From the NCBI RefSeq assembly GCF_002900095.1, contig NZ_LLKN01000002.1, positions 1,984,001-2,048,000 of the forward strand: 64,000 nt of DNA, in the 5' to 3' direction. The translations under genes and the position numbers were made by a program. The notes under the pieces were generated by a model. It saw nothing but the letters and a program-made list of their open reading frames with translations, was not told the DNA's origin and searched no databases. Every line of letters starts with the position of its first letter. The stretch's first letter is position 1. Below, one piece after another: positions 13,331 through 60,344 of this stretch. The DNA is from Salegentibacter mishustinae (GTDB lineage: Bacteria; Bacteroidota; Bacteroidia; Flavobacteriales; Flavobacteriaceae).

Positions 13331-13350
13331 TTACTTTCCAATACAGAAAT
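13331..13350. repeat. Left attachment site core (att direct repeat)
   Basis: TTACTTTCCAATACAGAAAT is identical to 60325-60344. The bases on either side differ (GTTA and CGTC here against CCAT and TAGA at the right copy), so 20 bp is the full extent of identity. No part of mnmE beyond the repeat is found here, as expected when the island carried a copy of the gene's last codons. Confidence 0.85.
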
Positions 13351-13387
13351 CGTCTTTTCAGGAATTACCTACACTTCCTGTATTTTG

Positions 13388-13405
13388 AGGTACAATCTAG
13401 GTACA
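13388..13405. promoter_or_regulatory. Arm-type integrase binding motifs, left end
   Basis: Two direct copies of AGGTACA start at 13388 and 13399, 11 bp apart, 38 bp inside the left core repeat. The same heptamer pair with the same 11-bp spacing lies near the right end (60184 and 60195). The spacing of one helical turn and presence at both ends suggest binding sites for the integrase's N-terminal arm-binding domain; this is inference. Confidence 0.55.
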
Positions 13406-13544
13406 CACCTATTTCTAACATGTCAAAAAAAGTTAAAAAATGTTAGCAAATAATTAGTCTTTTTTAATTTAACTGATAATTACGTAATTTAATTTCACAG
13501 TAATTTAGTTAAAAAATAGCTTTAGAGTTAATTTATCGGTTATT

Positions 13545-13790
13545 TCACCAGTGAGCTGCTACAATACTTTTACCTAGAAGTTGAGCTCTATAGTTTTTGC
13601 CAGTTAGCTTCAGTAGGGATTTCTTCCAATCAGGATGCCCCGTGGGCATTAGCCGGAGTGGTGCAGATTTTATTGGGGTGGCCTTACCTATTTCCATAAG
13701 GTCAAATAACGAGGCCTTTGAAGCAGCAGAAAGAATTAACCAGGTTAATTCCTCTCCGCCGAATCCATTACATGTTACCTTTAATTTCAT
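13545..13790 (-). CDS. Hypothetical protein, 81 aa
   Basis: An ATG-initiated frame with a balanced amino-acid composition: it begins MKLKVTCNGFGGEELTWLIL and ends KNYRAQLLGKSIVAAHW, with a central TPIKSAPLRLMPTGHPDWKK. The codon pattern and the higher G+C than its surroundings favour this strand over the overlapping plus-strand frame (13597-13800). I do not recognise a family. It lies just inside the left island end and could be a remnant of a larger gene. No clear ribosome-binding site or promoter is visible. Confidence 0.35.
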   Translation of the reverse strand: MKLKVTCNGFGGEELTWLILSAASKASLFDLMEIGKATPIKSAPLRLMPTGHPDWKKSLLKLTGKNYRAQLLGKSIVAAHW

Positions 13791-13800
13791 AGTAAACTAA

Positions 13801-14043
13801 AATGGGGCTGCCTGGCTTTATCTTTTTAAAATTTCTTGATTTGGTTCTTTACTTAATGGATAAGTTTGGACGTATATTATTTTAAATAGCTATTGGTATT
13901 TATTACTTCATACTTTGGGCTTCTTTTTTACCCCATTTCAAAAAATTTAGTATTTGTTGCTCTCATAAGAATAAAGACAGGGTCATCTTGTTCTAATCGG
14001 ATCTGGTTCGCTTGCCTCAGTTATATCTTTACTTTTTTAATCT
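13801..14043. other. AT-rich island-end region, no gene
   Basis: The 243 bp between the hypothetical gene and the decayed regulator carry only short frames with no recognisable product. I see no repeats or terminators. It may be decayed DNA at the island edge. Confidence 0.4.
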
Positions 14044-14181
14044 GCAAAGTAATTTGTATTCCAAGGATATCTGATTTTTAAAAAGATTCCAGGGTAGGAT
14101 TAGCCTGGCCTGTCTCGATCTTAGCATATTGCTTCCGATATCAACCAACTCTTCTAATTGTTTCTGGATAATCCTCATATT
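14044..14181 (-). pseudogene. Decayed XRE-family regulator
   Basis: On the minus strand one frame reads QLEELVDIGSNML and, after a shift of frame, another reads IETGQANPTLESF, then a stop, then KSDILGIQIT. These pieces in order match the recognition-helix and C-terminal part of a typical XRE repressor (pattern: xELVDIGxSxISKIETGQANPTLESLxKISDxLGI). At least one frameshift, a small deletion and one stop codon are needed to explain it. No intact start is seen. It is probably the relic of an island or phage-type regulator. Confidence 0.55.
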
Positions 14182-14348
14182 ATCGAGGCGTTTAAAACAT
14201 TAGGTAGAAACCCCTAAATAATGAAAATCAGTTATTAACAACGATAGATTTAATGAATAACCTTAAAAAAATCCAGAATTTTATCTATTTTTAATTTCTT
14301 AACTCCAAATCACTTTATTGATCTTGACTTTTTCTAATTGATAAAGGT

Positions 14349-17300
14349 TTGATAAAGAAATTCACGAAAGAGGAATCTTTAATAATTGATTATACCAAGA
14401 AAGGTGAGTTAATTGATTTCGAATTAGATTTCAAAAATAATCCAAAGATTGTAATTGACTCAAAGTTTTTAATCAATTTAATACTAGGTTTCCCTTTACC
14501 TAACAAACACGACGATTATAATTCAACCACCATTTATCCTCTAACAAGGAAAGGCCTTAATTTATCTGGAGTTCGGATCAAAGGAGTTTTAAATTTATCT
14601 GTAAGTTTAGGAACGTCTCCACTCCCGCCATTAACTTTTAGAAATTGTATTTTCGAAGGTGATTCTTTGGACTACTATAAAAAAGCAAGTCTAAGACCTA
14701 AGCCTTCATTCTCATCTACACATTGCCATTTTTCAAATCTCAAAATAGAAAATTGCAAAATTGGTTTTTGTGATTTTAAAAATTCAAAATTTCAGAGTGA
14801 CCTTATTATCACTGAATTAAAACCCTTAGTAAAAAATGGTATATGTATGATCGACCTTAGTCGAATTGATGTAAAAGGGATGGTTAGTATCAGTCGTACA
14901 ATTCTAAATCTTGCAGACAGAAGTACGGACCTTAATATTCCATATCGACGTAGCGGTATACCTTCAAATTACGCATTAACTCTTGCCGATTCTAGAATAA
15001 ATAACAGCTTATTTCTAAGACCTTATTTTAGAGTGAAAAATGGTGGGGTAAATCTATGTAACACGATAGTCTGTTCAGATTTTTGGTGTGATGGTTCTCA
15101 AATAAAAGCTAAGAAGAATAATTGGGCACTTTTTTGCCAATCTTTAAAAGTATATGGTACAGTTGGATTTACCGGGCTTCATTTTCAAAATGAGAAGAAA
15201 AATAAAGATTCAGACTTAAATATAATATCTAAGGAAAAAGTTTGTCAGATATGCAAAATTGAAGGAAAAGTTTCCTTCTTGTCTGCTAAACTTGGTGAAG
15301 CATTATTTTCAGGTTGCCAAATTAAAAAACTAAATGAAGATGACCAATTCATTTTTTCAGGTTCAACACTAAACCGTTTAACCATTAATCAATGGGTTTT
15401 TCTAAATCCTACAACAAAAAAAGAGGAATATCATCGATTTGAATCTGAAATGCCATTTATTTTTTCAGAATCAGCTATCAATGGTTCTGTTAAAATTTTA
15501 AATGCAAATCTTCCAGAATCTCTATTTTCAAACAACGTTAAAATTGAAGGAGACCTAAATATTGAAGATATTAAAACCCCTACCATTTCGTTTGCGAACT
15601 CAGAAGTACAAGGTTCAGTAAGTTTGAATGGTACTATTGAGACTTTTGGAGATTTTAGTGGCTTGACTGTCAACGGAGACTTTTCTCTAAGCTCAATATC
15701 ACAACAACTAGTATTGAAAAAATTGAGTAATAAATCGATTAAGATAAATTTAGAGGACACCATAATCCGTGGAAACTTAAAGATCTATCAAATAAAGGTA
15801 TCAGAATATTCCCCTCCAGAATGGACAAAAAAGAATTATTTTTTTCGTAAACGTGAATTAACGTGTTTCCAAAACATCACCTTAATAGAAGGAGTTTTCT
15901 ATGAAAACAAAAATTCGAAAGAAATTTATACTGTCTCATTTCTTGAAAAGAATGCCAAATACATTTATTTGAAAGGAAAAGTACTGGATTTTATTTCAAA
16001 AGATTTCTCTAAAAGCCTTCTTTTAAAAACCGACCAACAAATTAAAGATTACTTAAAGTTTTTTACTGCATTTGTTTGGGGTGAAGAGGGTTCATTTAGA
16101 ATTATAGAATCTAGAGAAGAACTTGCTCAGTGGGTAAGTTTAAATGAATCCTCCACCGAAGAGGAAAAAATGATAAATCAAATAGAGCCTATTGAAAAGT
16201 TACAACAAGACAAAGATTATTTTTATGCTAAAGCAAATGTGCTATATAAAGATACTTTATATGATACTTCTTTTAAAATAAACACCAAAAATGGAAAGAT
16301 TGAAATGCAGAATGACAAACCTAAATTTCGTTTTCAATCTACTAAAGTCTTTTTTGAGGATATATATCGGAAAATTAGACCTGTAGAATTTTTAGATTTT
16401 ACCCATGTGCCACCTCCATTAGGAAAGGCTACCGAATGGAAAATGATTACAGAAACAACTTCAAATTATCATTCTGATATTTTAGAAAAGAACTTCACAT
16501 CTAAAGTGCAAAAACCAATCATTAATTTGCAGGGAACAAAAGCTACTTGGCTTGAAGATAATCAAGGTAAGACTTGGGATGATGTTATTTTAAACTTGAA
16601 CGGATTCAGCTATGAGCATTTCGGTGAATTACCAGAATATTCAAATAAAAGTATCTACCGATCAGAAAATAAAGTAAAAAAACCGAATCTTAGAATATTA
16701 TGGAGGATCATAATTGTGGCAGCCCTTCTATACTTATTTTATATATCATACCTATGGATTTTAATAATTATAATTTTAATAATCACATTATCTATAAAAA
16801 TCTACAAAAAAAGAAAGAATTTTAATTTTAAAAAATCCTTAGAAGATTTCATTAAATGGATTTTTTATAAACCAAAAGAGAAATTACCAAAACTTAAACC
16901 CTTAAAATGGGGAAAATCATATAACCATTACAAATTGCGAAAATTTTGGCTTTTAAAGCAATTTAGTACCTGGCCGCCCAAAAAGGAAGATTATAAGCCA
17001 CAACCATTTGAACAGGCTGCTAAAGTATTTAAGCAAAATGGACAGTACAAAGAATCAATTTATATTCTTATTAGTAAACTTCGAATAGAAAGAGGTTTAT
17101 TTTATCCTTGGTTTCAAGTACCTTTAATGTGGATTTGGGATCATTTCTTTGGTTTTGGCATCAAAACTTGGATAGTATTAAGAACTTTCGTTTTGTTTTT
17201 TTTAATTGGATGGGCTAGTGTAAGTTTAGCTAATTCAGGAAAATTATCTTTTAGTTGGAAAAACTATAATTATAATCTATTGGCTATCGCTGAGCCAGTT

Positions 17301-17630
17301 TTAATAGTTGATGTCAATTCTGTAACTTCTTACGCGACATCATATGAAGAAAATTTTATAAAAGTTAGAGAAACTGCTATTCCAACTTTAGAGGGAAATT
17401 TTGCAAGGGTTATACCTTGTGGAAATAATGTTGAACCTTCACTATATGCGTTAGATGTGTTTGTACCTCTCTTAGATTTAAAACAAGACACAGAATGTAA
17501 AATTTCTGGTGAGCCAACTGCCTTACCTTGGAGAATAGCCAAAGCTTTATATGCACTATTAGGATGGATAATAACTTCTGTTCTTATACTTACCTTAAGC
17601 GGATATTTAAAACGTGAAGTCGAAAAATAA
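14349..17630 (+). CDS. Giant beta-helix-like membrane protein of the 'membrane-associated oxidoreductase' type
   Basis: The 1093-residue protein has a long N-terminal part (about 40-480) with repeats such as LTRKGLNLSGVRIKGVLNL and FSNLKIENCKIGFCDFKNSKF, which resemble pentapeptide-like right-handed beta-helix coils. Next come a mixed region (480-770), a hydrophobic block (about 780-815), a basic stretch, and a C-terminal part with EQAAKVFKQNGQYKESIYIL and two or more helices (about 937-960 and 1062-1085). Large proteins with repeats and this C-terminal pattern are annotated in other phyla as membrane-associated oxidoreductases, although no redox motif is visible. The start is a TTG at 14349 after AAAGG; there is no ATG between it and the upstream stop. 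Its place in the defence block makes an anti-phage or envelope role possible, but unproven. Confidence 0.6.
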   Translation: MIKKFTKEESLIIDYTKKGELIDFELDFKNNPKIVIDSKFLINLILGFPLPNKHDDYNSTTIYPLTRKGLNLSGVRIKGVLNLSVSLGTSPLPPLTFRNCIFEGDSLDYYKKASLRPKPSFSSTHCHFSNLKIENCKIGFCDFKNSKFQSDLIITELKPLVKNGICMIDLSRIDVKGMVSISRTILNLADRSTDLNIPYRRSGIPSNYALTLADSRINNSLFLRPYFRVKNGGVNLCNTIVCSDFWCDGSQIKAKKNNWALFCQSLKVYGTVGFTGLHFQNEKKNKDSDLNIISKEKVCQICKIEGKVSFLSAKLGEALFSGCQIKKLNEDDQFIFSGSTLNRLTINQWVFLNPTTKKEEYHRFESEMPFIFSESAINGSVKILNANLPESLFSNNVKIEGDLNIEDIKTPTISFANSEVQGSVSLNGTIETFGDFSGLTVNGDFSLSSISQQLVLKKLSNKSIKINLEDTIIRGNLKIYQIKVSEYSPPEWTKKNYFFRKRELTCFQNITLIEGVFYENKNSKEIYTVSFLEKNAKYIYLKGKVLDFISKDFSKSLLLKTDQQIKDYLKFFTAFVWGEEGSFRIIESREELAQWVSLNESSTEEEKMINQIEPIEKLQQDKDYFYAKANVLYKDTLYDTSFKINTKNGKIEMQNDKPKFRFQSTKVFFEDIYRKIRPVEFLDFTHVPPPLGKATEWKMITETTSNYHSDILEKNFTSKVQKPIINLQGTKATWLEDNQGKTWDDVILNLNGFSYEHFGELPEYSNKSIYRSENKVKKPNLRILWRIIIVAALLYLFYISYLWILIIIILIITLSIKIYKKRKNFNFKKSLEDFIKWIFYKPKEKLPKLKPLKWGKSYNHYKLRKFWLLKQFSTWPPKKEDYKPQPFEQAAKVFKQNGQYKESIYILISKLRIERGLFYPWFQVPLMWIWDHFFGFGIKTWIVLRTFVLFFLIGWASVSLANSGKLSFSWKNYNYNLLAIAEPVLIVDVNSVTSYATSYEENFIKVRETAIPTLEGNFARVIPCGNNVEPSLYALDVFVPLLDLKQDTECKISGEPTALPWRIAKALYALLGWIITSVLILTLSGYLKREVEK

Positions 17631-17766
17631 AAATTTTGAAAATAAAATTAAACTCGAATCTTAGAGGGAAGGCCCACCCTTCGATTTATTGACAATATTG
17701 AAAGAAATCTCATTGCATTTGGACTTATACAGCTCTCAATAAGTTTTTGTCTTTTATTCACCCAAA

Positions 17767-18978
17767 CTATGAATACCACTCCAAAATCTCCTTCCCAATC
17801 TCTGCATTTAATTTGCCATTTTCAATTATGTTTAACCGTCCCACAGCACATTGGTGATCCCTTGCTTTAAAATTCTTAAAATCGGGGACAATGGTTTTAG
17901 TGGCAGGATAGAGTAACATCGATTGTACAGACTCCCAGTAATCATTGTAAACGTACATCTGACGGAGATCCTGGGTAGAAGGTTTGAAATTTTGAATGTT
18001 TTTCCATTTCGTATCGATCACATAAAACTGGTCTTTCTTTTTAACGACGATATCCGGACGGATAGTTATTCCCTGCCAGAACTCTTTAGAGCTTTGTCCA
18101 TACACTTCTGTATCCTCCAACTTCAAAGCTTCTTTCTTCATCTTCACCAACACATATTCTTCCCAAAGGCTATTCATATCAAAAAGCAATGCGAGCATTT
18201 TTTCATCTCCGGAAGATATGTTTGGTGCGTAATGTAAAATAATAAATCTGGCAATTTCTAGAGCAGTTTTATAAGGCTGTGATTTCCTATCAAGTTTTAA
18301 TTTCTTAAAAGTATCTGCATCAATTTTAGAGGATGAAACCTCTGGAAAATTTAATTGTATTGATTTACATTTCGAATACAGATAAGAACCTTTTGAAAAA
18401 TGTTCTATAATGTCAAGAGCATAGGAAAGAATTTGATGGATCTGATGATCATAATCGTATACCTGATGTGTGCTATAAAAGCGCTCTTTATGGATTAGAT
18501 TTTTCTGAAGGTGGGCTGCAAATTCTAATTTGCCTTTAAGTGCTTTTACATTTCCTGTTTTTCGGCGATATTGCTTTATCAAACCCTGTCTTACCAGAAG
18601 ATCAACCTCAGTTAGATACCACTCAAAATAAATCTCTAGTAAATGAATTTTCTGTTTGGAAACATTAGCTTCACCAACTTTTTGAACTTTGAGATTTTTG
18701 GTAGCTTTCAACATATCCATTAAAACATCCCGCCATAATTTTGGGTTATCATTGTTTGTTGAATCTATCTTCGGAAGAATTTCCACCGTCAATCCATCTA
18801 CTTCAATAACACCTACATAGTTTTTAAATTTGATGCCGTTATAGCGCAAGTCAAAGTAGCAATCATCATGTAGAGCATTTAGTTTTGAAAAAGCTTTTAA
18901 ATGTTTTTGTTTAAATGCTCCGCCAACTTTTTTGAACTCATGCTCATAAACTTGTATTATGTTATTTGCTTTCTTCAC
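17767..18978 (-). CDS. mcrC: McrC-family restriction endonuclease subunit
   Basis: The 403-residue protein has the McrC layout: an N-terminal beta/alpha part (FKNYVGVIEVDGLTVEILPK, DVLMDMLKATKN) that binds the McrB ring, and a C-terminal PD-(D/E)XK nuclease with RPDIVVKKKDQFYVIDTKWK at about residues 306-325. In McrBC, GTP hydrolysis by McrB translocates DNA between modified recognition sites and McrC cuts both strands. The start overlaps the end of mcrB by 17 bases, so the two are translated together. It is the most distal gene of the minus-strand defence run. The modification recognised cannot be read from the sequence. Confidence 0.9.
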   Translation of the reverse strand: MKKANNIIQVYEHEFKKVGGAFKQKHLKAFSKLNALHDDCYFDLRYNGIKFKNYVGVIEVDGLTVEILPKIDSTNNDNPKLWRDVLMDMLKATKNLKVQKVGEANVSKQKIHLLEIYFEWYLTEVDLLVRQGLIKQYRRKTGNVKALKGKLEFAAHLQKNLIHKERFYSTHQVYDYDHQIHQILSYALDIIEHFSKGSYLYSKCKSIQLNFPEVSSSKIDADTFKKLKLDRKSQPYKTALEIARFIILHYAPNISSGDEKMLALLFDMNSLWEEYVLVKMKKEALKLEDTEVYGQSSKEFWQGITIRPDIVVKKKDQFYVIDTKWKNIQNFKPSTQDLRQMYVYNDYWESVQSMLLYPATKTIVPDFKNFKARDHQCAVGRLNIIENGKLNAEIGKEILEWYS

Positions 18979-24926: not shown

Positions 24927-24961
24927 AGCCCTGCCGTAAAAGAACCATTGCCAAAGAGCTC

Positions 24962-26593: not shown

Positions 26594-26596
26594 CAA

Positions 26597-29604: not shown

Positions 29605-29624
29605 TCGTCTATTCTCAATTTATT

Positions 29625-32846: not shown

Positions 32847-32850
32847 AAGT

Positions 32851-42980: not shown

Positions 42981-43014
42981 TTTAACCGCTTTAGCTGATA
43001 TAAATTACTAAAAT

Positions 43015-44742: not shown

Positions 44743-44842
44743 TAGAAAAATGAATTTTTGATTATTGACGTTTCTTATTCCCTGTGCAGAGTAATTTATT
44801 TCAAAACCTTATTAAAATTATAGGTACGAGTTCCTACTTAAA

Positions 44843-47983: not shown

Positions 47984-48069
47984 TATAAATGTTTTAAAAA
48001 AGCAGAGCCTGACCATGAAGAACGAATTTGCTATCACCTAAGTCTTCAAGCCAGACTCCATTTAATTGG

Positions 48070-49716: not shown

Positions 49717-49746
49717 TGTTTTAATTTTAAGTGAAAAGAATTACTT

Positions 49747-50874: not shown

Positions 50875-50904
50875 TTTAATAAATTTTAAATGGCTCTAGA
50901 GCTA

Positions 50905-51387
50905 TTACTCAACTTCAAAATCGATCACACCACCATCACGCCCTTGTGGAACACCGGTAGGACTCTCTCTCACCTCATCTAAAGTTGCGGTAAGGCCGTT
51001 TACATTTCTAACAACTACCTGGAACTCGAACTCGGTTCCGCTAGGTACATCGGGCACGGTATAATTAATTAAAAGGGAATCGGTTCTGCTTAGCTCAGAA
51101 TAAGCTTCCTCATATGGGAAAACTCTTAAATCGTCCAGTTCGGGATGCCCATCTACCTGAGCAAAGAAGTCGACCTGTTCTATAGAATCATTAGACCAGT
51201 ATCTTAGATCTAAAGTAATTTCTGAACCTGAGGAATAGTCTTCGTCAGACGTAGTGAAACTTGCAATTATAGGGGTACTTCTTCCGGTTTCCTCGACATT
51301 TTCTTCAAGCCAAAGATCATCGCTATAACAAGAGATAGCTGTGATGGCAATAAGGCCTGACAATAGTATTTTTGCTATATTTTTCAT
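50905..51387 (-). CDS. Small hypothetical surface lipoprotein
   Basis: The 160-residue protein has a lipobox (AITAISCYS, Cys about 20) and a mature part predicted as a single Ig-like beta sandwich (SFTTSDEDYSSGSEITLDL, EFEFQVVVRNVNGLTATL). It lies 11 bases downstream of susD and is clearly in the operon. Small lipoproteins after susCD often bind the glycan or peptide substrate. Function unknown. Confidence 0.7.
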   Translation of the reverse strand: MKNIAKILLSGLIAITAISCYSDDLWLEENVEETGRSTPIIASFTTSDEDYSSGSEITLDLRYWSNDSIEQVDFFAQVDGHPELDDLRVFPYEEAYSELSRTDSLLINYTVPDVPSGTEFEFQVVVRNVNGLTATLDEVRESPTGVPQGRDGGVIDFEVE

Positions 51388-51398
51388 AATTATTTATT

Positions 51399-52883
51399 TT
51401 ATTGATCCCACCATAACCTGGTAGATACGTCCTTTGTTGCTTCTTGTACATTTACATCATTTCGACTATATTCAGAATCCGGGTATCTCACCCTTCTTAC
51501 CCACCGACCTTCAAGAAACGGATTGTGCGCCACTGGGAGTTCAAGATCTTTGTATACGTTGTCGTTATAATCGTAGCGACGCATATCAGTCCAAACTTCG
51601 GGATGGAGAAACATAGCAAGGTATTTCTCTTTCATAATTAGATCCAAACTAAGGTTGTCTGCTTCTACCGCAATACTAGCATCCGAAAGGTATAAATTAG
51701 CATTAGCTGAACTCACACCTACTTTATCCATATTAGCTTCAATTCCTTCCAGGTAAGCCTGGTAAGCTTCCTCGGTAGCTCCTTCGCTTCTGGCATCCCC
51801 GCCATTAAGTAAAAATCTTGCTTCTGCCTCGATAAACTTATGTTCTGCATAAGTCACCATTTCAATAGGCGAAGTCTGGGAAGTATAGTAACTGTCTTCG
51901 GCAAAACGCGCATTGGCATTACCTTTCCCGGCACCATTGATACCACCAATAAGGGGTTCTCCTTCTGCTTCGTTGAAAGCAATGATATCCAAACGTGGAT
52001 CATTATCCAGTTCTGCACTGCCATATGGATAACTGGAACCATCCATATATTCTACAATCTGTTCAGAAACAATAAGGTTGGAGTTTCCTGTCTGACCTGC
52101 CAACACTACCCCAGCATACCAGGGGTTAAAGGTTCTGGTAGAGTAATCCAGTCCAAAATCATCGGCATTACTTTCCATTCCATGCTCCAAGGCATCCAAA
52201 GCATTTTGCGCAGCATCAACGGTACCTTTTTTAGTTAAATGAATAGCGTAGCGGGCTTTTAAGGTATAAGCCAATTTTATCCACTTAGAGATATCTCCTC
52301 CATAAACAAGATCTTCTTCACCAGGTTGATAAATAGTATTGTCTTCCATTTCAAGGTCCGCAATAGCGTCATCCAGTAAACCGGGAATTTGCGCATAAAT
52401 ATAGCTTTGGTCATTATAGGAAGGACTAAAATTTTCTTCCTCCATTAAAGCTTCATCAAAAGGAATGGCTCCCCAATGGTCTGTAGCAATCCCTATGTTC
52501 ATTACCCTTAATACTTTTGCAATTCCACGGTAATGATAAGCTTCAGCTTCTGTTGCTTTATCAATAATGGTTTTTGCAGAAGTTAGCCCGTCTAGGTAAA
52601 TATTTACCCAGGCCGATGTAAGCGAAAGTTCATTTTGATTACTTGGTCCATTATTACCTACTGAAGAGGACTGTTGTGTATACTGACTCGTATAATAGGC
52701 AATGTTGAAATAAGTGTCTGCTAGGTAGTAAATAGAAGTTGGTAAAATGACTTCCATTTCTACTTCTTCTTCACTTATCTTATTAGGATCATCGTTTGCA
52801 TCCAAAAAATCTTCGCATCCAGTAGCTAGTAGTAAAATACTGAATATGAGAAGATATTGATATTTAAATTTTGTTTTTATCAT
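51399..52883 (-). CDS. SusD/RagB-family nutrient-binding lipoprotein (SusD-like_2)
   Basis: The 494-residue protein has a lipobox (LLATGC, Cys about 23) followed by EDFLDANDDPNKI, typical of the SusD-like_2 branch, and a TPR-rich fold with SAKTIIDKATEAEAYHYRGIAKV, YTLKARYAIHLTKKG and VTYAEHKFIEAEARFLLNGG. It forms the lid over the SusC barrel and captures the substrate at the cell surface. Eleven bases separate it from susC. The SusD-like_2 group is often found with peptide or unknown substrates rather than with starch. Confidence 0.9.
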   Translation of the reverse strand: MIKTKFKYQYLLIFSILLLATGCEDFLDANDDPNKISEEEVEMEVILPTSIYYLADTYFNIAYYTSQYTQQSSSVGNNGPSNQNELSLTSAWVNIYLDGLTSAKTIIDKATEAEAYHYRGIAKVLRVMNIGIATDHWGAIPFDEALMEEENFSPSYNDQSYIYAQIPGLLDDAIADLEMEDNTIYQPGEEDLVYGGDISKWIKLAYTLKARYAIHLTKKGTVDAAQNALDALEHGMESNADDFGLDYSTRTFNPWYAGVVLAGQTGNSNLIVSEQIVEYMDGSSYPYGSAELDNDPRLDIIAFNEAEGEPLIGGINGAGKGNANARFAEDSYYTSQTSPIEMVTYAEHKFIEAEARFLLNGGDARSEGATEEAYQAYLEGIEANMDKVGVSSANANLYLSDASIAVEADNLSLDLIMKEKYLAMFLHPEVWTDMRRYDYNDNVYKDLELPVAHNPFLEGRWVRRVRYPDSEYSRNDVNVQEATKDVSTRLWWDQ

Positions 52884-52894
52884 CCTGTTAATTT

Positions 52895-55800
52895 TTAGAA
52901 ATTAAGACTAAGCCCAAATATTACACTTCTGGTATTTGGGATGCTATATCCCGTTAATCCAAAAGCATTACTTCCAGCACTGTAGGTTGTTCCTTCCGGA
53001 TCATAACCTTCGAAAGGTGTAATAAGCAATAGGTTATTCCCTGTGGCACTAAAGGTTACTCCACTAAAAAAAGTTCTGTCCAAAATTGATTTTGGTAAGC
53101 GGTAAGAGAGTGAGGCGCTTCTTAATCTTACCCAGGAAGCGTCCTGCATGAGAAGTTCTGAAGCAGCATTATAACGCGATAGCCTATAATAATCCTGATC
53201 TAAAATCACAGGTTGTGTATTAGGCTGTCCATCAGACGTCACCCCATCGAAAATCACTTCCTTATATCGTTGATTTGTTGCTGTAATGGTTCCAAATTCC
53301 CAATCGTTAATTCGACTTTCATCATAAGCATCCCCTCCTTGTTTAACTTCAACTAGAAAAGAAAAATTGAAATTCTTATAAGAAAAAGAGTTTGTTATTC
53401 CACCTGTCCAGTCCGGCATAGCTGAACCAACATATTTTAAAGAGTCTCTGTCTACATTTGGAAATCCAGCGTCATCTATCAGTAATTCGCCATCATCCGT
53501 ACGTTCATAGCCATAACCATATAAATCTCCCGGAGAACCCCCTTCGAGAACCCGACTAGTTACACCTTCAGCAGAACTTTGAAATTCGATAACTTCTAAA
53601 CCTTCTGGTAAACTTAGTACCTCACTTCTAATCCTAGACCAGTTTACGGTTACGTCCCACGAAAAATCTTTAGTTTGAATAGGTTTGAAATCTATTAAAG
53701 CTTCAATACCGGTACTTTCAATTTCTCCTGCATTGGTAGTAAACCTTGAAAGGCCACTTGGATTACTCACAGGAAAAGAAACAATTTGATTTTCACTGGC
53801 CTGTTGGAAATAGGTAAGGTCTACTCCTATTTTATTACCCCAAAACCTCAAATCTGTACCAAATTCATAAGAGGTGGTCGTTTCAGGCTTTAAATTTAAG
53901 TCTCCCGCTGAATTTGATTTTTTAAATCCTCCAATTCCATTTAAGGGGAAACCAGGAGTTCCTTCAAAATATTGGCCTACTACATAAGGGGAAGCATCTT
54001 TACCTACCTTAGCCCAGGATGCTCTTAATTTACCATAACTAAGAAAGTCATCCCGTTGTGCGCCCAAGGTTTCAGTAAAAATATATCCCATATTAACCGA
54101 AGGATAAAAGAAAGACCTGTTGTCCTTTGGAAGAGTAGATGCCCAGTCATTTCTTGCAGTTACATTTAAAAACAAGGTTTCCTTATAATTTAACTTTGCA
54201 TCAGCAAAAACACCTACTAGCCTTCTGGTGTAAGCGTTTTTATTTGTAAATAAGTTAGTGGTATTACTTAGGTCTTTAAAATCTGGAAGATTAAAACCTT
54301 CCCCTCTAGTATTTAACCTGTCGTAATTTATATCGGTAACCTGATTACCTAACGTTAAGGAACCTGAGAAATCAGAATTGAATTCCTTTTGGAGAGTTAC
54401 AAGAAAGTTTGAGTTAATTTCCTTATAGTTAATGTTCTCCTCTATCATAAATCCGTTTACCGGGATAGCTACTTTAATATCGTTGGCAGCAAATCTAACT
54501 CGACTGTCGTTATAATAATCCATACCGATTTTATAATCTACCGTCATCCACTTAAAAGGAGTATAGTTGAAACCTACAGCTCCAATAATCCTATTAACAT
54601 CATCTTCAAAAGTGCTGTTCTCGGCAAGGTACAAAGGGTTATTTATAACTCCATTAGTATAATCCTTTTCAGAGCCATCAGGCATCACATGATCATTCAC
54701 ATCTATAGTTGGCGACCATCTTCTAAGGTTACTTACCACAGATTTGTCACCCCCGTTTGGACGGCTACCTCCGGAATTCGTGTAATTAGCACTTCCAGAT
54801 ACTTTAAAATTCTCAGCTAAAGTAGTTTCTCCGCTTATTTTTATAGTTGTTCTTTTATAATTAGTATTAGGAACAATTCCCTCCTGATCCATATGGGAAA
54901 CTGAAGTATAAAAATTGGTTTTGCTATTTCCGCCAGATATACTTGCATAATTATTGAACCTCAAGCCAGTCTTGTAAAATTCTTCGTGAGGATTGGCCGG
55001 GTTATCCAAAGGCCCATTAGGCGGACCCCAGGTATAATAACCATAGGAATAGCCAAAACGACTATCGGGATCTTCAAAAGCCCTGGCGCGACCTCTCCAT
55101 CCTTCACGATAGGTCATCTGAATATCCGGTGTTTTGCTTACCTCTTCAAACGCTATGGTACTTTTAACCCTAATCTGTGTTTTACCTTCTTTTCCTTTTT
55201 TAGTGGTTATAATCACCGCGCCGTTTGCCGCTCGAAGTCCATATAACGCGGTAGCGGAAGGACCTTTTAAGATAGAAATTGACTCAATATCCTCGGGATT
55301 AATATCAGCCGCACGGTTGGTAAATGAATATTGCTCGTTACTTCCGGATGCTGCTGAACCTTCGCTAGGCAATACACTCCCCGAAGTTGTTGAGTTGGAA
55401 ATAGGCATTCCATCTACTACAAATAATGGTTGGTTATCGCCTGATGGACTAAGAGAAGTAATACCCCTTATTATAATATTGGAACCAGCTCCTGCTGCCC
55501 CACTCGAGCTATTAATTGAAACCCCGGCAACCTTTCCCCTAAGTGCATTAACCAGGTTTGGTTCTTCTGTACGGGCGATTTCTTCGCCTGAGACTTCCTG
55601 TACGGCATAACCTAAGGCTTTTTTCTCTTGTTTTATTCCAAAAGAAGTTACTACTACTTCATTTAAAGATTCAGAGGTGGTTCCTAAGGTAACATCTACA
55701 GTTTCCCTTCCCTCCAATGGAATTTCTTTGGTTTCGTAACCAACAAATGAAAAAACCAAAACTGCATTACTTTGAGAAACCTGCAAGGAATAATTTCCTT

Positions 55801-56362
55801 CCATATTAGTGACAGTCCCATTTGAAGTTCCTTTTTCTATTACAGTAACCCCTGGAATTGGTAAACCATCTTCATCTTCAACATACCCCTTTACTTCTAT
55901 ATCCTGTAACACGGAAGCCTGAGTTGCATTCAGTCTTTCTAAATTTTGTTTATTTGTTTCTGATGGTGTATTCCTATTTGAATTATTTCGAAGAGTTTTC
56001 CTAAGTGGATTATTGGGGGAATAAATAACAAAGTTATCTTTCTCTAATTTTTGAATATCGAGATTGACATTCCTAAGAATTTCTCTAAGTGATTTTTCAA
56101 GCTGTCCCTTCTCAAGCTTTACTTCATCTAAAGCAATTAACTGATTTTCTACCAGATTACTATCATAATTAAAATGAACTTCCAGTTCTTTGGAAATCTC
56201 GCTTAAGAGTTTCTTTAGGGAAATCTTCCCGGAGGACTTTCCTGTTTTTTCCTGAAGAGGTTGCACTGAAGCCAGCTGCTCCTGAGAGCTTACCGGATGA
56301 GTATATATGAATATACCCATGATCATCGTGACAGCCAGTAAAGGTTGTACAATTTTCAACAT
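52895..56362 (-). CDS. SusC/RagA-family TonB-dependent transporter with STN signalling domain
   Basis: The 1155-residue protein has a signal peptide (MLKIVQPLLAVTMIMGIFIYTHP), an STN domain (about 45-110: KISLKKLLSEISKELEVHFN), a carboxypeptidase-like domain (about 155-235: VKGYVEDEDGLPIPGV), a plug with LNEVVVTSFGIKQEKKALGY and the usual NALRGKVAGVSI, and a 22-strand barrel that ends in Phe (FGLSLNF). The STN domain contacts FecR and signals substrate presence. It would import oligomers through TonB. The lack of glycoside hydrolases nearby points away from a carbohydrate. It lies 18 bases after fecR. Confidence 0.95.
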   Translation of the reverse strand: MLKIVQPLLAVTMIMGIFIYTHPVSSQEQLASVQPLQEKTGKSSGKISLKKLLSEISKELEVHFNYDSNLVENQLIALDEVKLEKGQLEKSLREILRNVNLDIQKLEKDNFVIYSPNNPLRKTLRNNSNRNTPSETNKQNLERLNATQASVLQDIEVKGYVEDEDGLPIPGVTVIEKGTSNGTVTNMEGNYSLQVSQSNAVLVFSFVGYETKEIPLEGRETVDVTLGTTSESLNEVVVTSFGIKQEKKALGYAVQEVSGEEIARTEEPNLVNALRGKVAGVSINSSSGAAGAGSNIIIRGITSLSPSGDNQPLFVVDGMPISNSTTSGSVLPSEGSAASGSNEQYSFTNRAADINPEDIESISILKGPSATALYGLRAANGAVIITTKKGKEGKTQIRVKSTIAFEEVSKTPDIQMTYREGWRGRARAFEDPDSRFGYSYGYYTWGPPNGPLDNPANPHEEFYKTGLRFNNYASISGGNSKTNFYTSVSHMDQEGIVPNTNYKRTTIKISGETTLAENFKVSGSANYTNSGGSRPNGGDKSVVSNLRRWSPTIDVNDHVMPDGSEKDYTNGVINNPLYLAENSTFEDDVNRIIGAVGFNYTPFKWMTVDYKIGMDYYNDSRVRFAANDIKVAIPVNGFMIEENINYKEINSNFLVTLQKEFNSDFSGSLTLGNQVTDINYDRLNTRGEGFNLPDFKDLSNTTNLFTNKNAYTRRLVGVFADAKLNYKETLFLNVTARNDWASTLPKDNRSFFYPSVNMGYIFTETLGAQRDDFLSYGKLRASWAKVGKDASPYVVGQYFEGTPGFPLNGIGGFKKSNSAGDLNLKPETTTSYEFGTDLRFWGNKIGVDLTYFQQASENQIVSFPVSNPSGLSRFTTNAGEIESTGIEALIDFKPIQTKDFSWDVTVNWSRIRSEVLSLPEGLEVIEFQSSAEGVTSRVLEGGSPGDLYGYGYERTDDGELLIDDAGFPNVDRDSLKYVGSAMPDWTGGITNSFSYKNFNFSFLVEVKQGGDAYDESRINDWEFGTITATNQRYKEVIFDGVTSDGQPNTQPVILDQDYYRLSRYNAASELLMQDASWVRLRSASLSYRLPKSILDRTFFSGVTFSATGNNLLLITPFEGYDPEGTTYSAGSNAFGLTGYSIPNTRSVIFGLSLNF

Positions 56363-56380
56363 GTTTTAGCTAGTTTTTAG

Positions 56381-57409
56381 TTACTTTCGGAAAATTATTT
56401 TCCCATCTTTATTAGTAACATCTATATCAAATGAAAGTTCCAGGGTTCTAAGAAATTCTTCAATATTCCCGGTTTTAATAACTCCCGTAAACTTACGTTG
56501 CATAAGTTTTGGGTCTTCAAAAACCACTTCCAATCCAAAGTTATCTTCAAGAACGTACTTTATCTCACCTAGTTCTGTAGCTTCAAAAATCATCAAATCA
56601 TCTACCCAACTTGCGTATTTACGGGTATTAACTTTCGATTTCTTTAGCACCTTATCTTTGGTAGAAACCTCGGCATGTTCACCAGGTTCAAGAATTAGGG
56701 GAGCTGCACTCTTATCCAGCTTGTTCTCTAATTTAACCTTACCGGTTAACAGGGTCACTTTTGTTTTCCCTCTACGCTCACCAACATTAAAGGACGTTCC
56801 TAAAACTTCTACATTTAAGTTTCCAGAATGAACCAGGAAAGTTTTGCGTACATTGTTTTCCCCACGGGTTTTGACCACCTCAAAGAAAGCTTCACCTTCC
56901 AACCATACTTCCCTAATATTTACCCCACTCCAATCTTTGGCATAGGATATTTCAGAGTTAGCATTAAGGATAACTGAAGAACCATCTGGCAACATCATTT
57001 CCCGCTTTTCAGCAAAATCTGTACTTATAGTAGTTCGCTGAAAATTGTTTAAAAAGAAATAACTTAGAAATGCGATAATAGCAAAGCTTGCTGCAATCCC
57101 GGTATAGCGGAGAATACTTCTTCGTTTTATACCTTTTGGCTGCTGATCTCCACTTTTTAAAGAATCTATCCTAGAGTTAATTTTTTCCAGAAGTTTTTCT
57201 TTTTGAAATGGATTTAATACTACCTCATCTTGAAACTCCAGAGACTTTATAATTTTAATAGCTTTATCAACCTCTTTTTGTTTTTGAGGATTTTCAGCCA
57301 GAAACTTTCTCCAGAATACTGCGGATTTTTTATCATCAGACAATACCCAGTTTAAAAAGGAATCATCTGAAATAAAATCGGTAGCATTATAGCTTTGATA
57401 CTTCTCCAT
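56381..57409 (-). CDS. FecR-family anti-sigma factor (DUF4974 C-terminus)
   Basis: The 342-residue protein has an N-terminal cytoplasmic anti-sigma segment (DFISDDSFLNWVLSDDKKS), one membrane helix (about 100-118, YTGIAASFAIIAFLSYFF), the periplasmic FecR domain (MMLPDGSSVILNANSEISYAKDW) and a DUF4974/STN-like end (FGLEVVFEDPKLM, LELSFDIDVTNKDGKIIF). It holds the sigma factor inactive until SusC binds substrate. ATG 57409 (MEKYQSYNATDF) is preferred to the longer frame at 57448. Confidence 0.9.
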   Translation of the reverse strand: MEKYQSYNATDFISDDSFLNWVLSDDKKSAVFWRKFLAENPQKQKEVDKAIKIIKSLEFQDEVVLNPFQKEKLLEKINSRIDSLKSGDQQPKGIKRRSILRYTGIAASFAIIAFLSYFFLNNFQRTTISTDFAEKREMMLPDGSSVILNANSEISYAKDWSGVNIREVWLEGEAFFEVVKTRGENNVRKTFLVHSGNLNVEVLGTSFNVGERRGKTKVTLLTGKVKLENKLDKSAAPLILEPGEHAEVSTKDKVLKKSKVNTRKYASWVDDLMIFEATELGEIKYVLEDNFGLEVVFEDPKLMQRKFTGVIKTGNIEEFLRTLELSFDIDVTNKDGKIIFRK

Positions 57410-57509
57410 TTGATTTAAATGTTTAGATGAAAAACGCGCGAAATTCAACTAGTTTGTTACCAGTAAATGCACATATTTGAGATTTTACCCCATTTTTTTC
57501 ACAAAAGTT

Positions 57510-58082
57510 TTAGAAAAACATAAAAATAAACACAAAATTGCCTCTAAGTCTTTCTATAGCGCGGGATAGGAGTTTATAAGTAGCTTTTACACTAAGATCC
57601 ATTACTTCCGCGATTTCAGAGAATTCTAGTTTAGCGTAAAAACGTAAGTAAACAATTTCTTTCTGTCTATTAGTCAGCTTATTAAGACTTTGGTGGATTT
57701 TTTTTATGGTAGCTTCATCTAAATTCTCGGTGGCAGGTTCGGTTTTAAGCTTTTGGGCAATTGCTGATTCAGAAAAGTCATATTGAAATCCAAATTTTTG
57801 AGATTTCTTTAAATTTCTAAATATCCTTCGTTTTAAAGATTTAAATAAATAAAATTTAATGGAAGTAGTATCCTTTATTTTGTGTCGTTTTTCCCAAATA
57901 GTAATAAAAACTTCTTGAATACTGTCTTCTACAAGGCCATGGTCGGAAGTTATCTTTGCACCATAGCTATAAAGCACATCAATATTTCTGTGGTAAACTT
58001 CATTCAGGGCGGAACGTTCACCACTACACAATAAACTCCACAGCTCTGAATCTGAAAAACCTAAGTAATTTTCCTTACCCAT
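57510..58082 (-). CDS. ECF RNA polymerase sigma factor (FecI-like)
   Basis: The 190-residue protein has sigma region 2 (ALNEVYHRNIDVLYSYGAKI, VEDSIQEVFITIWEKRHKI) and region 4 (LTNRQKEIVYLRFYAKLEFSEIAEVMDLSVKATYKLLSRAIERL). It is the Bacteroidota group paired with FecR and STN-type SusC. It is the first gene of the locus and would drive transcription of the susCD operon when freed. The TAAATTTG 42 bases upstream fits a housekeeping -7 box. Confidence 0.95.
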   Translation of the reverse strand: MGKENYLGFSDSELWSLLCSGERSALNEVYHRNIDVLYSYGAKITSDHGLVEDSIQEVFITIWEKRHKIKDTTSIKFYLFKSLKRRIFRNLKKSQKFGFQYDFSESAIAQKLKTEPATENLDEATIKKIHQSLNKLTNRQKEIVYLRFYAKLEFSEIAEVMDLSVKATYKLLSRAIERLRGNFVFIFMFF

Positions 58083-58123
58083 CTAAGATGACTCCTATCT
58101 TTTTAAAATATCTCTATAATTCC

Positions 58124-58131
58124 CAAATTTA
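58124..58131 (-). promoter_or_regulatory. Possible -7 promoter box of the sigma-factor gene
   Basis: The complement reads TAAATTTG, a fit to TAnnTTTG, 42 bases before the sigma start codon. No good -33 box is at the usual distance, so the support is weak. Confidence 0.35.
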
Positions 58132-58249
58132 ACAAGTGTTTCCAGTAAAATGACATTAAGTCCACATTTATTTCAACAATTTTAATTTCGCTTAAAAAAA
58201 GCTATTGGGAAATTTAAAAATGAAGTAGTTTCATGGATTCGATTAATTT

Positions 58250-58969
58250 TCACCTCAGATCCTGAAATATTTTATTCAAAGCTTGATTATTTTTTGAATA
58301 CGGTGTACGAGTATGAGCATTTTTCAAGGTATTGTATTTATACTTTTTTCCATTAGCCCTCAACACTAGGTCGGAAGTAATAAATAGGTTCTTAATAGTC
58401 ATCGTGTTCTTAGGAAATGTTTGCGAAAGAAATTCATAAAATTCACGAGAGCTAGGACCATCCATATTAAAATGGATTTTTGAATTATGAGCGTCCCAAT
58501 CTTTAGATAATACATTCCTGAAATCCAGCAAGCTTGTTTTCTCAATATTTAAAAGATCATACTTCATTAAATTATGATACAACTTTTGAGCTTGATCTTC
58601 TGATATTTTTAAATTAAAATTTTTGTTCTTTTTTAGGGAGCCAGCGGACTTTTGGCTTTGTATACTATTTTTAAATTTATCGGTCCAGGGAAGAATGGAA
58701 AGAAAAAAGCCGGCTAAAAAAACAAGAAAACTTATTGCTAGGACTATAAGTGTATCTGATTCAATAGTATACCGCGAATAAAACGCAAGATGCATAACTC
58801 CCAAACCCATCCCCATAAAAAGGATCCTTGGTTTTTCAATTTTTGTATTCCATAAAATTCTTTCATTCATCATATAAGCCCAAAACATTTTACCATAGTG
58901 TAAAATAAGCCTTCCATAAATATAGATGAAGCCAAGGGTGGTCAGGTATTTGAATAAATCAAAACTCAT
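58250..58969 (-). CDS. Membrane protein next to integrase, unknown function
   Basis: The 239-residue protein has four predicted membrane helices in the first half (about 9-24, 28-36 weak, 48-64 and 74-93, the last FLVFLAGFFLSILPW) and a soluble C-terminal half (120-239) with KISEDQAQKLYHNLMKYDLL and GPSSREFYEFLSQTF. Its start overlaps the end of the integrase gene by 11 bases, so the two are probably co-expressed. I do not recognise the family. The link to the integrase suggests a role in the island's excision or maintenance, or in superinfection exclusion, all inferred from position. Confidence 0.7.
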   Translation of the reverse strand: MSFDLFKYLTTLGFIYIYGRLILHYGKMFWAYMMNERILWNTKIEKPRILFMGMGLGVMHLAFYSRYTIESDTLIVLAISFLVFLAGFFLSILPWTDKFKNSIQSQKSAGSLKKNKNFNLKISEDQAQKLYHNLMKYDLLNIEKTSLLDFRNVLSKDWDAHNSKIHFNMDGPSSREFYEFLSQTFPKNTMTIKNLFITSDLVLRANGKKYKYNTLKNAHTRTPYSKNNQALNKIFQDLR

Positions 58970-60101
58970 AATCCATTTCGAGTTCAGGAATTAAATTAGC
59001 TGCTTCCTTCTTTTTCTTATCCACTATTTTGGCATATACTTGTGTAGTTCTTATTTCTTTATGTCCTAAGACTTTTGAAACCGTATAAATATCAGCTCCG
59101 TACTCTAATAGTAATACTGCGTGCGTATGCCTAGCGCTATGAAAAGTTATATGTTTAGTAATACCCGCCCGCATACACCATCTAAGTATTTCTGCATTAA
59201 AATGGGCACCATATTTTAACCCTTGAAACACACGGTCATTTTCCCTTTTCCGTTTTCCAATAATTTGTCTCGCCTGATCAGATATATATTGATATTCCTG
59301 TCCCGAAGTCTTCTTTTGTTTAAAAATTAGCCGTGAACCTTCCTCTTCATCTCTAACTTCAAGCCAGGTAAGTTTGTTAATATCGCTCCACCTTAGGCCG
59401 GTTAAACAACTAAACATAAAAGCATTCTTAAGAACTTGATGTTTACAATAAGCTTTAGCCATAGCCTGCAATTCATCTTGCGTAAGGTATTCTCTGGTTG
59501 TTTCTTCCTGTGCAAAACCTTTTACAGTAGTAGCGAAGTTTCTTCTGGTATAACCATCGTCAAAAGCCTGACGTAATGCGGCTTTAAATTTATTATAATA
59601 GGTATATTTAGAGTTCTGTGATAACAGCGTTTTAGATTTCGTTTTTGCTTTTTTACTCAAAAACTTTTTAAATCCTATAACGAAATCTTCATCAATGTCT
59701 TCAAAGGATATTTTCTTCTTTCCTATGTAGGCCTCTATATGATTTTGGGCCGCATCCCAATTATCATAATTTCCTTTACTTTCATATCGTTCCTCCTTTA
59801 ATTTATCATAGTAGGTAATAAATAAAAGTTTGTTCTTGCTTTTATCTTTAATACCATATTTTCCCTGAGCATACTCTGCTCTTCTGATAGATAATATCTG
59901 TTCTGCCCTTTCAAGAGTTTCTTTATTTTCTCTCTTTTCAGAAGAAGTTTGAGGTGAAATAATCAGGTATTCTTTGAGATATTCAAACTCCCTATGACCC
60001 TTCGTTTTTCCGTTTTCATCTAAACTCGATCCTTTATAGTAATCAAGATAAAGACTGTATTTCCCGGAGGCTAATTTCTTTTTTCTAAGCTTTATTTTCA
60101 T
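58959..60101 (-). CDS. int: Tyrosine recombinase/integrase of the island
   Basis: The 380-residue protein has an arm-binding N-terminus (MKIKLRKKKLASGKYSLYLD), a SAM-like core-binding domain (ENIDEDFVIGFKKFLSKK-like, about 145-220) and the catalytic domain with Arg in CLTGLRWSDINKL, the His-x-x-Arg of HSARHTH, His in GHKEIRTTQ and the nucleophile Tyr in TQVYAK. By family it joins att sites by strand exchange. ATG 60101 is taken; an in-frame ATG at 60131 adds ten odd residues. It reads away from the right att core, 223 bases distant, with arm-type motifs in between. Confidence 0.95.
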   Translation of the reverse strand: MKIKLRKKKLASGKYSLYLDYYKGSSLDENGKTKGHREFEYLKEYLIISPQTSSEKRENKETLERAEQILSIRRAEYAQGKYGIKDKSKNKLLFITYYDKLKEERYESKGNYDNWDAAQNHIEAYIGKKKISFEDIDEDFVIGFKKFLSKKAKTKSKTLLSQNSKYTYYNKFKAALRQAFDDGYTRRNFATTVKGFAQEETTREYLTQDELQAMAKAYCKHQVLKNAFMFSCLTGLRWSDINKLTWLEVRDEEEGSRLIFKQKKTSGQEYQYISDQARQIIGKRKRENDRVFQGLKYGAHFNAEILRWCMRAGITKHITFHSARHTHAVLLLEYGADIYTVSKVLGHKEIRTTQVYAKIVDKKKKEAANLIPELEMDYEF

Positions 60102-60143
60102 AACCACCTTATTTCCATAAAGATAGATCAAAAATTGATACCG

Positions 60144-60201
60144 AGGTACAAATTTTGTACCCCGTTAGTAATATTTAACATCGAGGTACAAACGAGGTAC
60201 A
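60144..60201. promoter_or_regulatory. Arm-type integrase binding motifs, right end
   Basis: AGGTACA occurs at 60144, 60184 and 60195, and the inverse form TGTACCC at 60156. The last two direct copies are 11 bp apart, the same spacing as the pair inside the left end. They lie between the integrase gene and the core repeat, where arm sites and integrase autoregulation are expected. Confidence 0.55.
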
Positions 60202-60278
60202 AAAAAGGTCTAAAATGATATTATTAAAGTAAAAATGAGAATACTTTGGAAGAGCTCGTATCCATTAATTTCGTTGGG

Positions 60279-60308
60279 TTTTGATGTCATTTGATATCAT
60301 TTGATATC
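60279..60308. repeat. Three tandem 10-bp repeats beside the right att core
   Basis: The units are TTTTGATGTC, ATTTGATATC and ATTTGATATC, one helical turn each, and the last runs into AAAT to make the palindrome TTTGATATCAAA (60300-60311). They end 16 bases before the core repeat. There is no counterpart at the left end, which suggests a directional site such as an excisionase or second integrase site. Confidence 0.5.
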
Positions 60309-60324
60309 AAATTTAATTACCCAT

Positions 60325-60344
60325 TTACTTTCCAATACAGAAAT
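60325..60344. repeat. Right attachment site core, 3' end of mnmE
   Basis: The same 20 bases as 13331-13350. Read on the minus strand they encode Phe-Cys-Ile-Gly-Lys-stop, the conserved C-terminus of MnmE with its catalytic Cys. The integrase therefore uses a highly conserved protein-coding end as its target, and the gene is rebuilt exactly on integration. Confidence 0.85.

What the first reader, a model, noticed from the sequence alone, without database searches (positions are those of the whole stretch)
13331..60344. A 47-kb mobilizable island integrated into the conserved 3' end of mnmE
A perfect 20-bp direct repeat brackets a block that contains an integrase at one end and mobilization and replication genes in the middle. 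The right copy encodes the catalytic FCIGK-stop of MnmE, so integration rebuilds the gene. Known facts: tyrosine integrases often use conserved gene 3' ends. The new element here is a non-tRNA, protein-coding target chosen at the invariant catalytic C-terminus, and a cargo that joins a nutrient locus to a defence block.
Basis: partly seen in the sequence, partly recalled or inferred. Interest (0 to 1): 0.85.

Follow-up and report, generated by a model that had tools for sequence, protein, structure and literature searches.

The report
Mobile island inserted at mnmE's end
A 47-kb mobile DNA island carrying phage-defence and nutrient genes sits in the last codons of a tRNA-modification gene, and relatives of its integrase occupy that same spot in many Bacteroidota; the target itself was already known from Salmonella-type islands.

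Summary
Confirmed: window 13331-60344 is an integrated, probably mobilizable element in a Salegentibacter-type genome. Its 20-bp repeat occurs exactly twice in the genome. One relative, G007, shows the predicted empty site. Both ends carry paired arm-like repeats. The backbone (tyrosine integrase, HTH, VapE-like, Toprim, NikA-like, relaxase) recurs at mnmE in sibling species with other cargo.

Not supported: the target as a novelty. The last 18 bp of thdF/trmE/mnmE is the known attB of SGI1, and trmE's 3' end is called a known hot spot.

What looks new is the extent in Bacteroidota. Of 80 fetched integrase relatives, 74 have MnmE directly upstream, 1 has a cut mnmE end, and 5 lie further downstream of mnmE. 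In 20 of 24 genomes a second att core lies 9-61 kb downstream. In 148 evenly drawn phylum genomes, 6 of the 8 best matches (own included) and 0 of the 9 weaker ones are beside mnmE. Eight literature searches showed no report of this family.

Transfer is inferred: no TraG in the island, two elsewhere in the genome.

The parts
13331..13350 (+). attL core (20 bp); original 3' end of the host site, left flank side
   Evidence: Exact copy of 60325-60344; only two exact copies in the genome; empty site in G007
13387..13405 (+). paired arm-like sites GAGGTACAA / AGGTACA, 11 bp apart, at +57 and +68 from the start of the core
   Evidence: Same positions in left ends of G005 and G014 (contig C67); variant first site in G010, G012, G008; absent at the assumed left ends of G004 and G001
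14349..17630 (+). 1093-aa pentapeptide-like protein, cargo, function unknown
   Evidence: Pfam Pentapeptide_3 E=2e-4, below its cut-off
17767..18978 (-). McrC-like, type IV restriction
   Evidence: Pfam McrBC 201.8 bits
18962..21685 (-). McrB-like AAA protein
   Evidence: Pfam AAA_5 58 bits
21824..22849 (-). PDC-M62B candidate defence protein (Septu PtuB-like, weaker)
   Evidence: PADLOC PDC-M62B 151 bits
22846..24480 (-). PDC-M62A candidate defence ATPase (PtuA-like, weaker)
   Evidence: PADLOC PDC-M62A 158 bits
24660..25792 (+). IS3-type insertion sequence, two ORFs
   Evidence: Read from the translations; not run against a family library
25958..26596 (-). GIY-YIG protein beside the type I RM genes
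   Evidence: Pfam GIY-YIG at its cut-off; 92% identical in G004
26597..28144 (-). HsdS, type I specificity subunit
   Evidence: Pfam and PADLOC; only 44% identical in G004
28144..29604 (-). HsdM
   Evidence: PADLOC MTase_I 659.5 bits; 97% in G004
29625..32864 (-). HsdR
   Evidence: Pfam EcoEI_R_C, ResIII; 96% in G004
32851..33468 (-). 205-aa protein travelling with the RM cassette
   Evidence: 98% in G004; weak DpnII-like match below cut-off
33656..34276 (+). SRAP (HMCES/YedK) family protein
   Evidence: Pfam SRAP 184.3 bits
35253..35714 (-). DUF6730 protein beside the relaxase
   Evidence: Pfam
35723..36595 (-). MobA/VirD2-type relaxase
   Evidence: Pfam Relaxase 102.9 bits; NCBIfam MbpB 89.4 bits, below its cut-off of 400
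36592..36888 (-). NikA-like MobC accessory protein
   Evidence: Pfam NikA-like 69 bits
37013..37882 (-). Toprim primase-like protein
   Evidence: Pfam Toprim_2, Zn_ribbon_DnaG
38082..39263 (-). VapE-like helicase/ATPase
   Evidence: Pfam VapE-like_dom 117.8 bits
39275..39565 (-). HTH_17 protein, possible excisionase or regulator
   Evidence: Pfam HTH_17 49 bits; 54-99% conserved in siblings and relatives
41736..58082 (-). nutrient locus: D-amino-acid dehydrogenase-like DAO, gamma-glutamyltransferase, D-aminoacylase, glutamate-racemase-like lipoprotein, 548-aa lipoprotein, beta-lactamase-fold hydrolase, SusD, SusC, FecR, sigma factor
   Evidence: Pfam, NCBIfam, PDB; the sigma factor and lipoprotein signals are read from the translations
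58250..58969 (-). 239-aa membrane-anchored protein overlapping the integrase gene by 11 bp
   Evidence: No Pfam or NCBIfam match; found beside int in siblings; no PDB fold match at E<=0.001
58959..60101 (-). tyrosine integrase, 380 aa; R237, H321, R324, H347, Y356 invariant in 15 diverse relatives
   Evidence: Pfam, alignment A2; naming these the catalytic residues is recalled
60143..60204 (+). arm-like sites GAGGTACAA at 60143, 60183 and 60194 (the last two 11 bp apart)
   Evidence: 4 of the 5 GAGGTACAA copies in the window lie in the first 200 or last 214 bp of the element
60325..60344 (+). attR core; encodes the FCIGK-stop end of MnmE on the - strand
60325..61761 (-). mnmE, host target gene, reading frame kept
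   Evidence: ORF list; orthologues in 15 of 15 genus genomes

Best explanation
This is an integrative and mobilizable element. Its tyrosine integrase recombines an attP core with the last 20 bp of mnmE. Because the element's core also encodes ...FCIGK-stop, mnmE is rebuilt at attR and the old gene end is displaced to attL. Shown here: att repeats, an empty site in a relative, arm-like repeats at both ends, a shared backbone with changed cargo in sibling species, and an integrase lineage found mostly at mnmE across Bacteroidota. Inferred: strand exchange within the AT(C/T)GG of the core, excision aided by the HTH_17 protein, nicking by the relaxase, and transfer through a resident CTnDOT-type conjugation system. 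The cargo is swappable: here McrBC, a PDC-M62 pair, a type I RM system and a gamma-glutamyl/D-amino-acid uptake locus.
For: Two exact cores in the genome. Empty site in G007. Clade integrase 214-237 bp from mnmE in 8 of the 14 other genus genomes, 6 without stops and 2 broken. Conserved backbone, other cargo. Arm-like pairs. 74 of 80 relatives with MnmE directly upstream, 1 cut mnmE end, 5 further downstream. Second core in 20 of 24 genomes; reversed-pattern controls of the same call (49 hits in 24 genomes) imply about 0.3 (my arithmetic). Hybrid att sites in G005, G010, G014. Relaxase. TraG over cut-off in 11 of 15 genus genomes, two in this one, none in the island.
Against: No excision or transfer was observed. 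GC content does not mark the island. The empty site rests on one genome. The two cores here are identical, so the crossover cannot be placed in this copy. In 2 of the 8 best phylum matches the integrase is not beside mnmE. A family fragment lies away from mnmE in G011 (C11). The distal ends of G001 and G004 lack the arm-like repeats.
Confidence: 0.92

Rival explanations
1. A former mobile element, now fixed: it entered by integrase but no longer moves, and persists as a defence and nutrient island.
For: Integrases are broken in G004 and G001 and absent in G008, which keeps the mob block; the window copy holds an IS3-type insertion.
Against: In the window copy the integrase, relaxase, primase and VapE-like frames are open, both cores are identical and the arm-like repeats are intact.
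Confidence: 0.25
2. A defective prophage or phage satellite rather than an IME.
For: VapE-like and primase genes also occur in phage satellites (recalled); two gut contigs deposited as phage records encode relatives, one of them beside mnmE.
Against: A relaxase and a NikA-like protein are present; none of the 30 island proteins scanned with Pfam gave a capsid, portal, terminase or tail family. The gut record with mnmE is a chromosomal junction, not a virion genome.
Confidence: 0.04
3. The repeat is chance or an artefact and the block is ordinary chromosomal DNA.
For: GC is near that of the flanks.
Against: Only two exact copies genome-wide, the G007 empty site and the recurring distal cores.
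Confidence: 0.01

Closest known systems
SGI1 and SGI1-related elements (SGI1, PGI1, PGI2, AGI1), Gammaproteobacteria
   Same: Tyrosine integrase; attB is the last 18 bp of thdF/trmE/mnmE; direct repeats; tandem arrays at the site; mobilizable, about 40 kb with changing cargo (passages of PMC2297512 and PMC9035990).
   Different: Mobilization module differs: SGI1 uses MpsA/MpsB (abstract of PMC9299015 in the listing), here a MobA/VirD2-type relaxase with a NikA-like partner. SGI1 uses IncA/C helpers; none was tested here. Sequence kinship of the integrases was not tested.
Bacteroides mobilizable elements NBU1/NBU2, Tn4555, Tn4399
   Same: Bacteroidota; own MOBP-type relaxase, no mating pore; mobilized by CTnDOT-like ICEs (passages of PMC5704250). 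Primase beside mob genes as in NBU1 (recalled).
   Different: NBU1 uses a tRNA-Leu site (recalled). Relaxase here reaches 89 bits on MbpB against a cut-off of 400.
Riemerella anatipestifer 10K and 50K genomic islands (Flavobacteriales)
   Same: Integrase-driven islands in the same order with direct repeats.
   Different: Inserted at or downstream of tRNA genes (passages of PMC6764341 and PMC9745183).
dusA-targeting integrase family
   Same: An integrase lineage tied to one conserved tRNA-modification gene in many bacteria (abstract of PMC4482086 in the listing).
   Different: The 5' end of dusA, another gene and another phylogenetic range.

Membership tests
Integrative and mobilizable element (IME) | Integrase and flanking att repeats at a specific site | tested here: met
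Integrative and mobilizable element (IME) | Own relaxase but no complete conjugation system | tested here: met
   Relaxase and NikA-like; no T4SS family in the 30 island proteins scanned; no TraG in the island. The sigma factor, the IS ORFs and a 162-aa ORF were not scanned.
Integrative and mobilizable element (IME) | Found integrated and absent at the same site in relatives | tested here: met
   Empty site in G007; other elements at the site in siblings
Integrative and mobilizable element (IME) | Excises, circularizes and is mobilized in trans | not testable with these tools
   Needs culture work; candidate helper TraG genes are present
SGI1 family | Integration at the 3' end of trmE/mnmE | tested here: met
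   literature passages
SGI1 family | SGI1-type mobilization module (MpsA/MpsB) | tested here: inconclusive
   No MpsA/MpsB model was searched; the module found is a MobA/VirD2-type relaxase with a NikA-like protein
SGI1 family | SGI1-type integrase homology | not tested
SGI1 family | Dependence on IncA/IncC helper plasmids | not testable with these tools
NBU-type Bacteroides mobilizable element | Relaxase in the curated MbpB/NBU-type families | tested here: not met
   MbpB 89.4 bits against a cut-off of 400; related but outside the curated family
NBU-type Bacteroides mobilizable element | tRNA-Leu 3' end as target (recalled) | tested here: not met
   Target is mnmE; no tRNA gene in the window

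The most novel reading that the evidence does not exclude
Bacteroidota hold an old lineage of tyrosine integrases that has kept one attachment site, the near-invariant FCIGK-stop codons of mnmE, across Flavobacteriaceae, Crocinitomicaceae-type and Cytophagales bacteria, Dysgonomonas and gut contigs. The mobile elements it serves use this nearly universal site as a docking port and shuttle interchangeable cargo, from BREX, Dnd and restriction systems to SusC/D nutrient loci, often accreting in tandem. Together with SGI1 this would make the mnmE end a target reached independently in two phyla.
Probability: 0.65. Interest if true: 0.62.

Novelty: new variant of a known kind. Interest (0 to 1): 0.5.

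Why it matters
If it holds, one conserved protein-coding site explains where many Bacteroidota park defence systems and SusC/D nutrient loci, and gives a simple way to find such islands: read downstream of mnmE. In the 74 relatives with mnmE upstream, the core varies almost only at wobble positions, which suggests why the element can cross genera. The integrase and attP would be candidate tools for site-specific integration in poorly tractable Bacteroidota. The docking site would also make the question of how defence and nutrient loci spread among marine Flavobacteriia directly testable.

Tried and rejected
Chance repeat: rejected. tRNA target: none in the window. Novel target: rejected on literature. 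Compositional foreignness: not seen. Helper search with PF07863: no hit anywhere, controls included, so uninformative; TIGR03783 was used instead. 239-aa protein: AlphaFold model with pLDDT 82 and pTM 0.50, 28 PDB matches at E<=10 and none at E<=0.001; function left open. SGI1 integrase for comparison: I took E. coli mnmE and searched E. coli genomes; 5374 of 5426 had a match and 4602 had a place covering at least 80% of the query. Of the 60 rows listed, 9 stop at the end of mnmE; the 4 opened held a single extra gene and no integrase, so this was dropped. Literature: 8 searches showed no Bacteroidota mnmE element in the rows listed; this covers open-access papers only, and large island databases such as TIGER/Islander may list such islands unnamed. 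Rows left out: L158 from alignment A2 because its stretch held a stop; L123, L146, L147 and L187 from the tree because under 330 aa. The tree is a quick one with long-branch warnings and near-copies.
Full report
The observation. On the minus strand the right copy is the end of mnmE, FCIGK-stop. The window lies in a genome whose genus-mates have the contig lengths of Salegentibacter flavus, S. sediminis, S. lacus, S. agarivorans and Salegentibacter sp. 24, so I take the genus as Salegentibacter.

Empty site and siblings. Among 15 held genus genomes, 15 have mnmE. A full-length or nearly full-length integrase of the same clade (79-91% identity) stands 214-237 bp from the mnmE end in 8 of the 14 others; in G004 it has stops and in G001 it is in pieces. 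Clade fragments also lie 35-53 kb downstream of mnmE in G012 and, away from mnmE, on contig C11 of G011. In G007 the window's left flank runs directly into mnmE through the core: the predicted empty site, seen in one genome. G008 keeps the mobilization block and a left end but no clade integrase, and G009 keeps only a piece of the 239-aa gene. G002, G006 and G013 showed no island gene in the stretches fetched.

Anatomy of the element. Next to attR comes the integrase, overlapped by a 239-aa membrane-anchored protein of unknown function. The middle holds HTH_17, VapE-like, Toprim, NikA-like, relaxase and DUF6730 genes. This set recurs in sibling islands at 46-99% identity while the rest changes: BREX genes (BrxC, PglX, PglZ) in G014, DndF/DndG in G005, a GH32 locus with SusC/SusD in G010, and in G004 the same type I RM cassette at 92-98% identity but with an HsdS only 44% identical. 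GAGGTACAA occurs five times in the window, four of them within the first 200 or last 214 bp of the element; AGGTAC pairs stand 11 bp apart at both ends. The left pair sits at +57/+68 in G005 and G014 too, with a variant first site in G010, G012 and G008, but is missing at the ends I assumed for G004 and G001. This is the layout expected of arm-type integrase sites; binding was not tested.

Where the crossover lies. In G005 and G014 attR reads TGCATCGG then CAAATAA, while attL reads TGTAT(C/T)GG then AAAGTAA; the empty G007 site reads TGCATCGGAAAGTAA. The simplest reading is a switch within AT(C/T)GG, the codons of Ile and Gly, so that the element supplies the last codons of mnmE. G010 agrees. 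The attL of G014 lies on another contig and is assigned by its end sequence, so this is inference. In the window both cores are identical and say nothing on the point.

Reach of the integrase family. A scan of 84,980 species genomes returned the best 80 of 105 relatives. MnmE is directly upstream in 74 of 80. L104 begins inside an mnmE end, and L101, L115, L123 and L146 have a core-like copy upstream, with 2 to 5 mismatches. For L101, L115, L125 and L146 mnmE lies about 10-41 kb upstream on the same contig and strand, with another integrase beside it, and L123 is the second unit of the G012 array. L125 has no recognizable core. Organisms include Flavobacteriaceae, Cryomorphaceae/Crocinitomicaceae MAGs, Dyadobacter and Dysgonomonas; a human gut contig also has mnmE followed by a relative. 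In 24 of the 80 genomes, chosen for long contigs, I looked for a second core downstream of mnmE: 20 of 24 have one on the same contig and strand, 9-61 kb away; L107, L126, L161 and L162 do not. Controls with the reversed pattern gave 49 hits in the 24 genomes (about 106 Mb), which I work out as about 0.3 expected.

A less biased sample. favours close kin, so I searched 148 evenly drawn phylum genomes with a profile of 15 diverse members. There were 17 matches in 16 genomes. Of the 8 at 302 bits or more, 6 (own included) are beside mnmE; L186 and L187 are not, and in both genomes mnmE lies on another contig. L187 follows what reads like the end of dnaK (my reading). Of the 9 at 283 bits or less, none is beside mnmE within the flank held. 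On a quick tree of 96 integrases the mnmE label needs 3 changes against 9.7 in shuffles, none of 500 as low; near-copies and long branches limit this. So the target is a property of this lineage, with exceptions.

Cargo of the window copy. The defence block holds McrBC, a PDC-M62 A/B pair and a type I RM system. The nutrient locus combines a sigma/FecR pair, SusC/SusD, gamma-glutamyltransferase, a D-aminoacylase whose PDB relatives include N-acyl-D-glutamate deacylase, a glutamate-racemase-like protein with both cysteine motifs but below the curated cut-off, and a D-amino-acid dehydrogenase-like enzyme. I read it as uptake and breakdown of gamma-glutamyl or D-glutamate-rich polymers such as poly-gamma-glutamate or peptidoglycan peptides; that is inference.

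Mobility. The island has a relaxase but no TraG; two TraG genes of the Bacteroidetes conjugation type are elsewhere in the genome, and 11 of 15 genus genomes have at least one. Transfer through such a helper is likely but unshown.

Known and new. SGI1 integrates into the last 18 bp of thdF (passages of PMC2297512), a review table lists SGI1 and MGIVchHai6 at the 3' end of trmE (passages of PMC5704250), and PMC9035990 calls the site a known hot spot with several unrelated islands and tandem arrays (passages). A Bacteroidota lineage devoted to the same site did not appear in eight full-text searches of an open-access library. I rate it a new variant of a known kind, of moderate interest.

Noticed in passing
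window 41736-58082: SusC/D locus with gamma-glutamyltransferase, D-aminoacylase, a glutamate-racemase-like lipoprotein and a D-amino-acid dehydrogenase-like enzyme: looks like use of gamma-glutamyl or D-glutamate polymers. An exported racemase of this fold would be unusual (recalled).
   Followed up: partly
G012 mnmE region, oriented 29460-32360 (L066/L065): A second unit downstream in the G012 array holds a related racemase (63%) and D-aminoacylase (39%), so such loci travel more than once.
   Followed up: no
window 58250-58969: 239-aa membrane-anchored protein overlapping the integrase gene by 11 bp; conserved beside int in close relatives, no known family or PDB fold match.
   Followed up: partly
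window 25958-33468 and G004 (L080): Type I RM cassette with GIY-YIG and 205-aa neighbours at 92-98% identity but HsdS at 44%: specificity swapped within an otherwise shared cassette.
   Followed up: no
window 3461-13280: The uvrA-like/XRE flank is in another order and orientation in G005, G008, G009 and G001, a rearrangement next to the hot spot.
   Followed up: no
G018 contig C6 (Salinimicrobium terrae), L179: mnmE is read in two overlapping frames: a frameshift or an assembly error, beside a tandem array at the site.
   Followed up: no
L187 (G040): A family integrase (39% identity) lies just downstream of what reads like the dnaK 3' end, not mnmE: a possible change of target.
   Followed up: partly
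E. coli genomes, mnmE-tnaC interval: 772 of 5374 matched genomes have no place covering 80% of the mnmE-end query; the 4 opened have one extra gene right after mnmE and no integrase.
   Followed up: partly
L205 (MT837961.1): A record deposited as phage from human faeces is an mnmE-integrase junction with a family member at 46% identity.
   Followed up: partly
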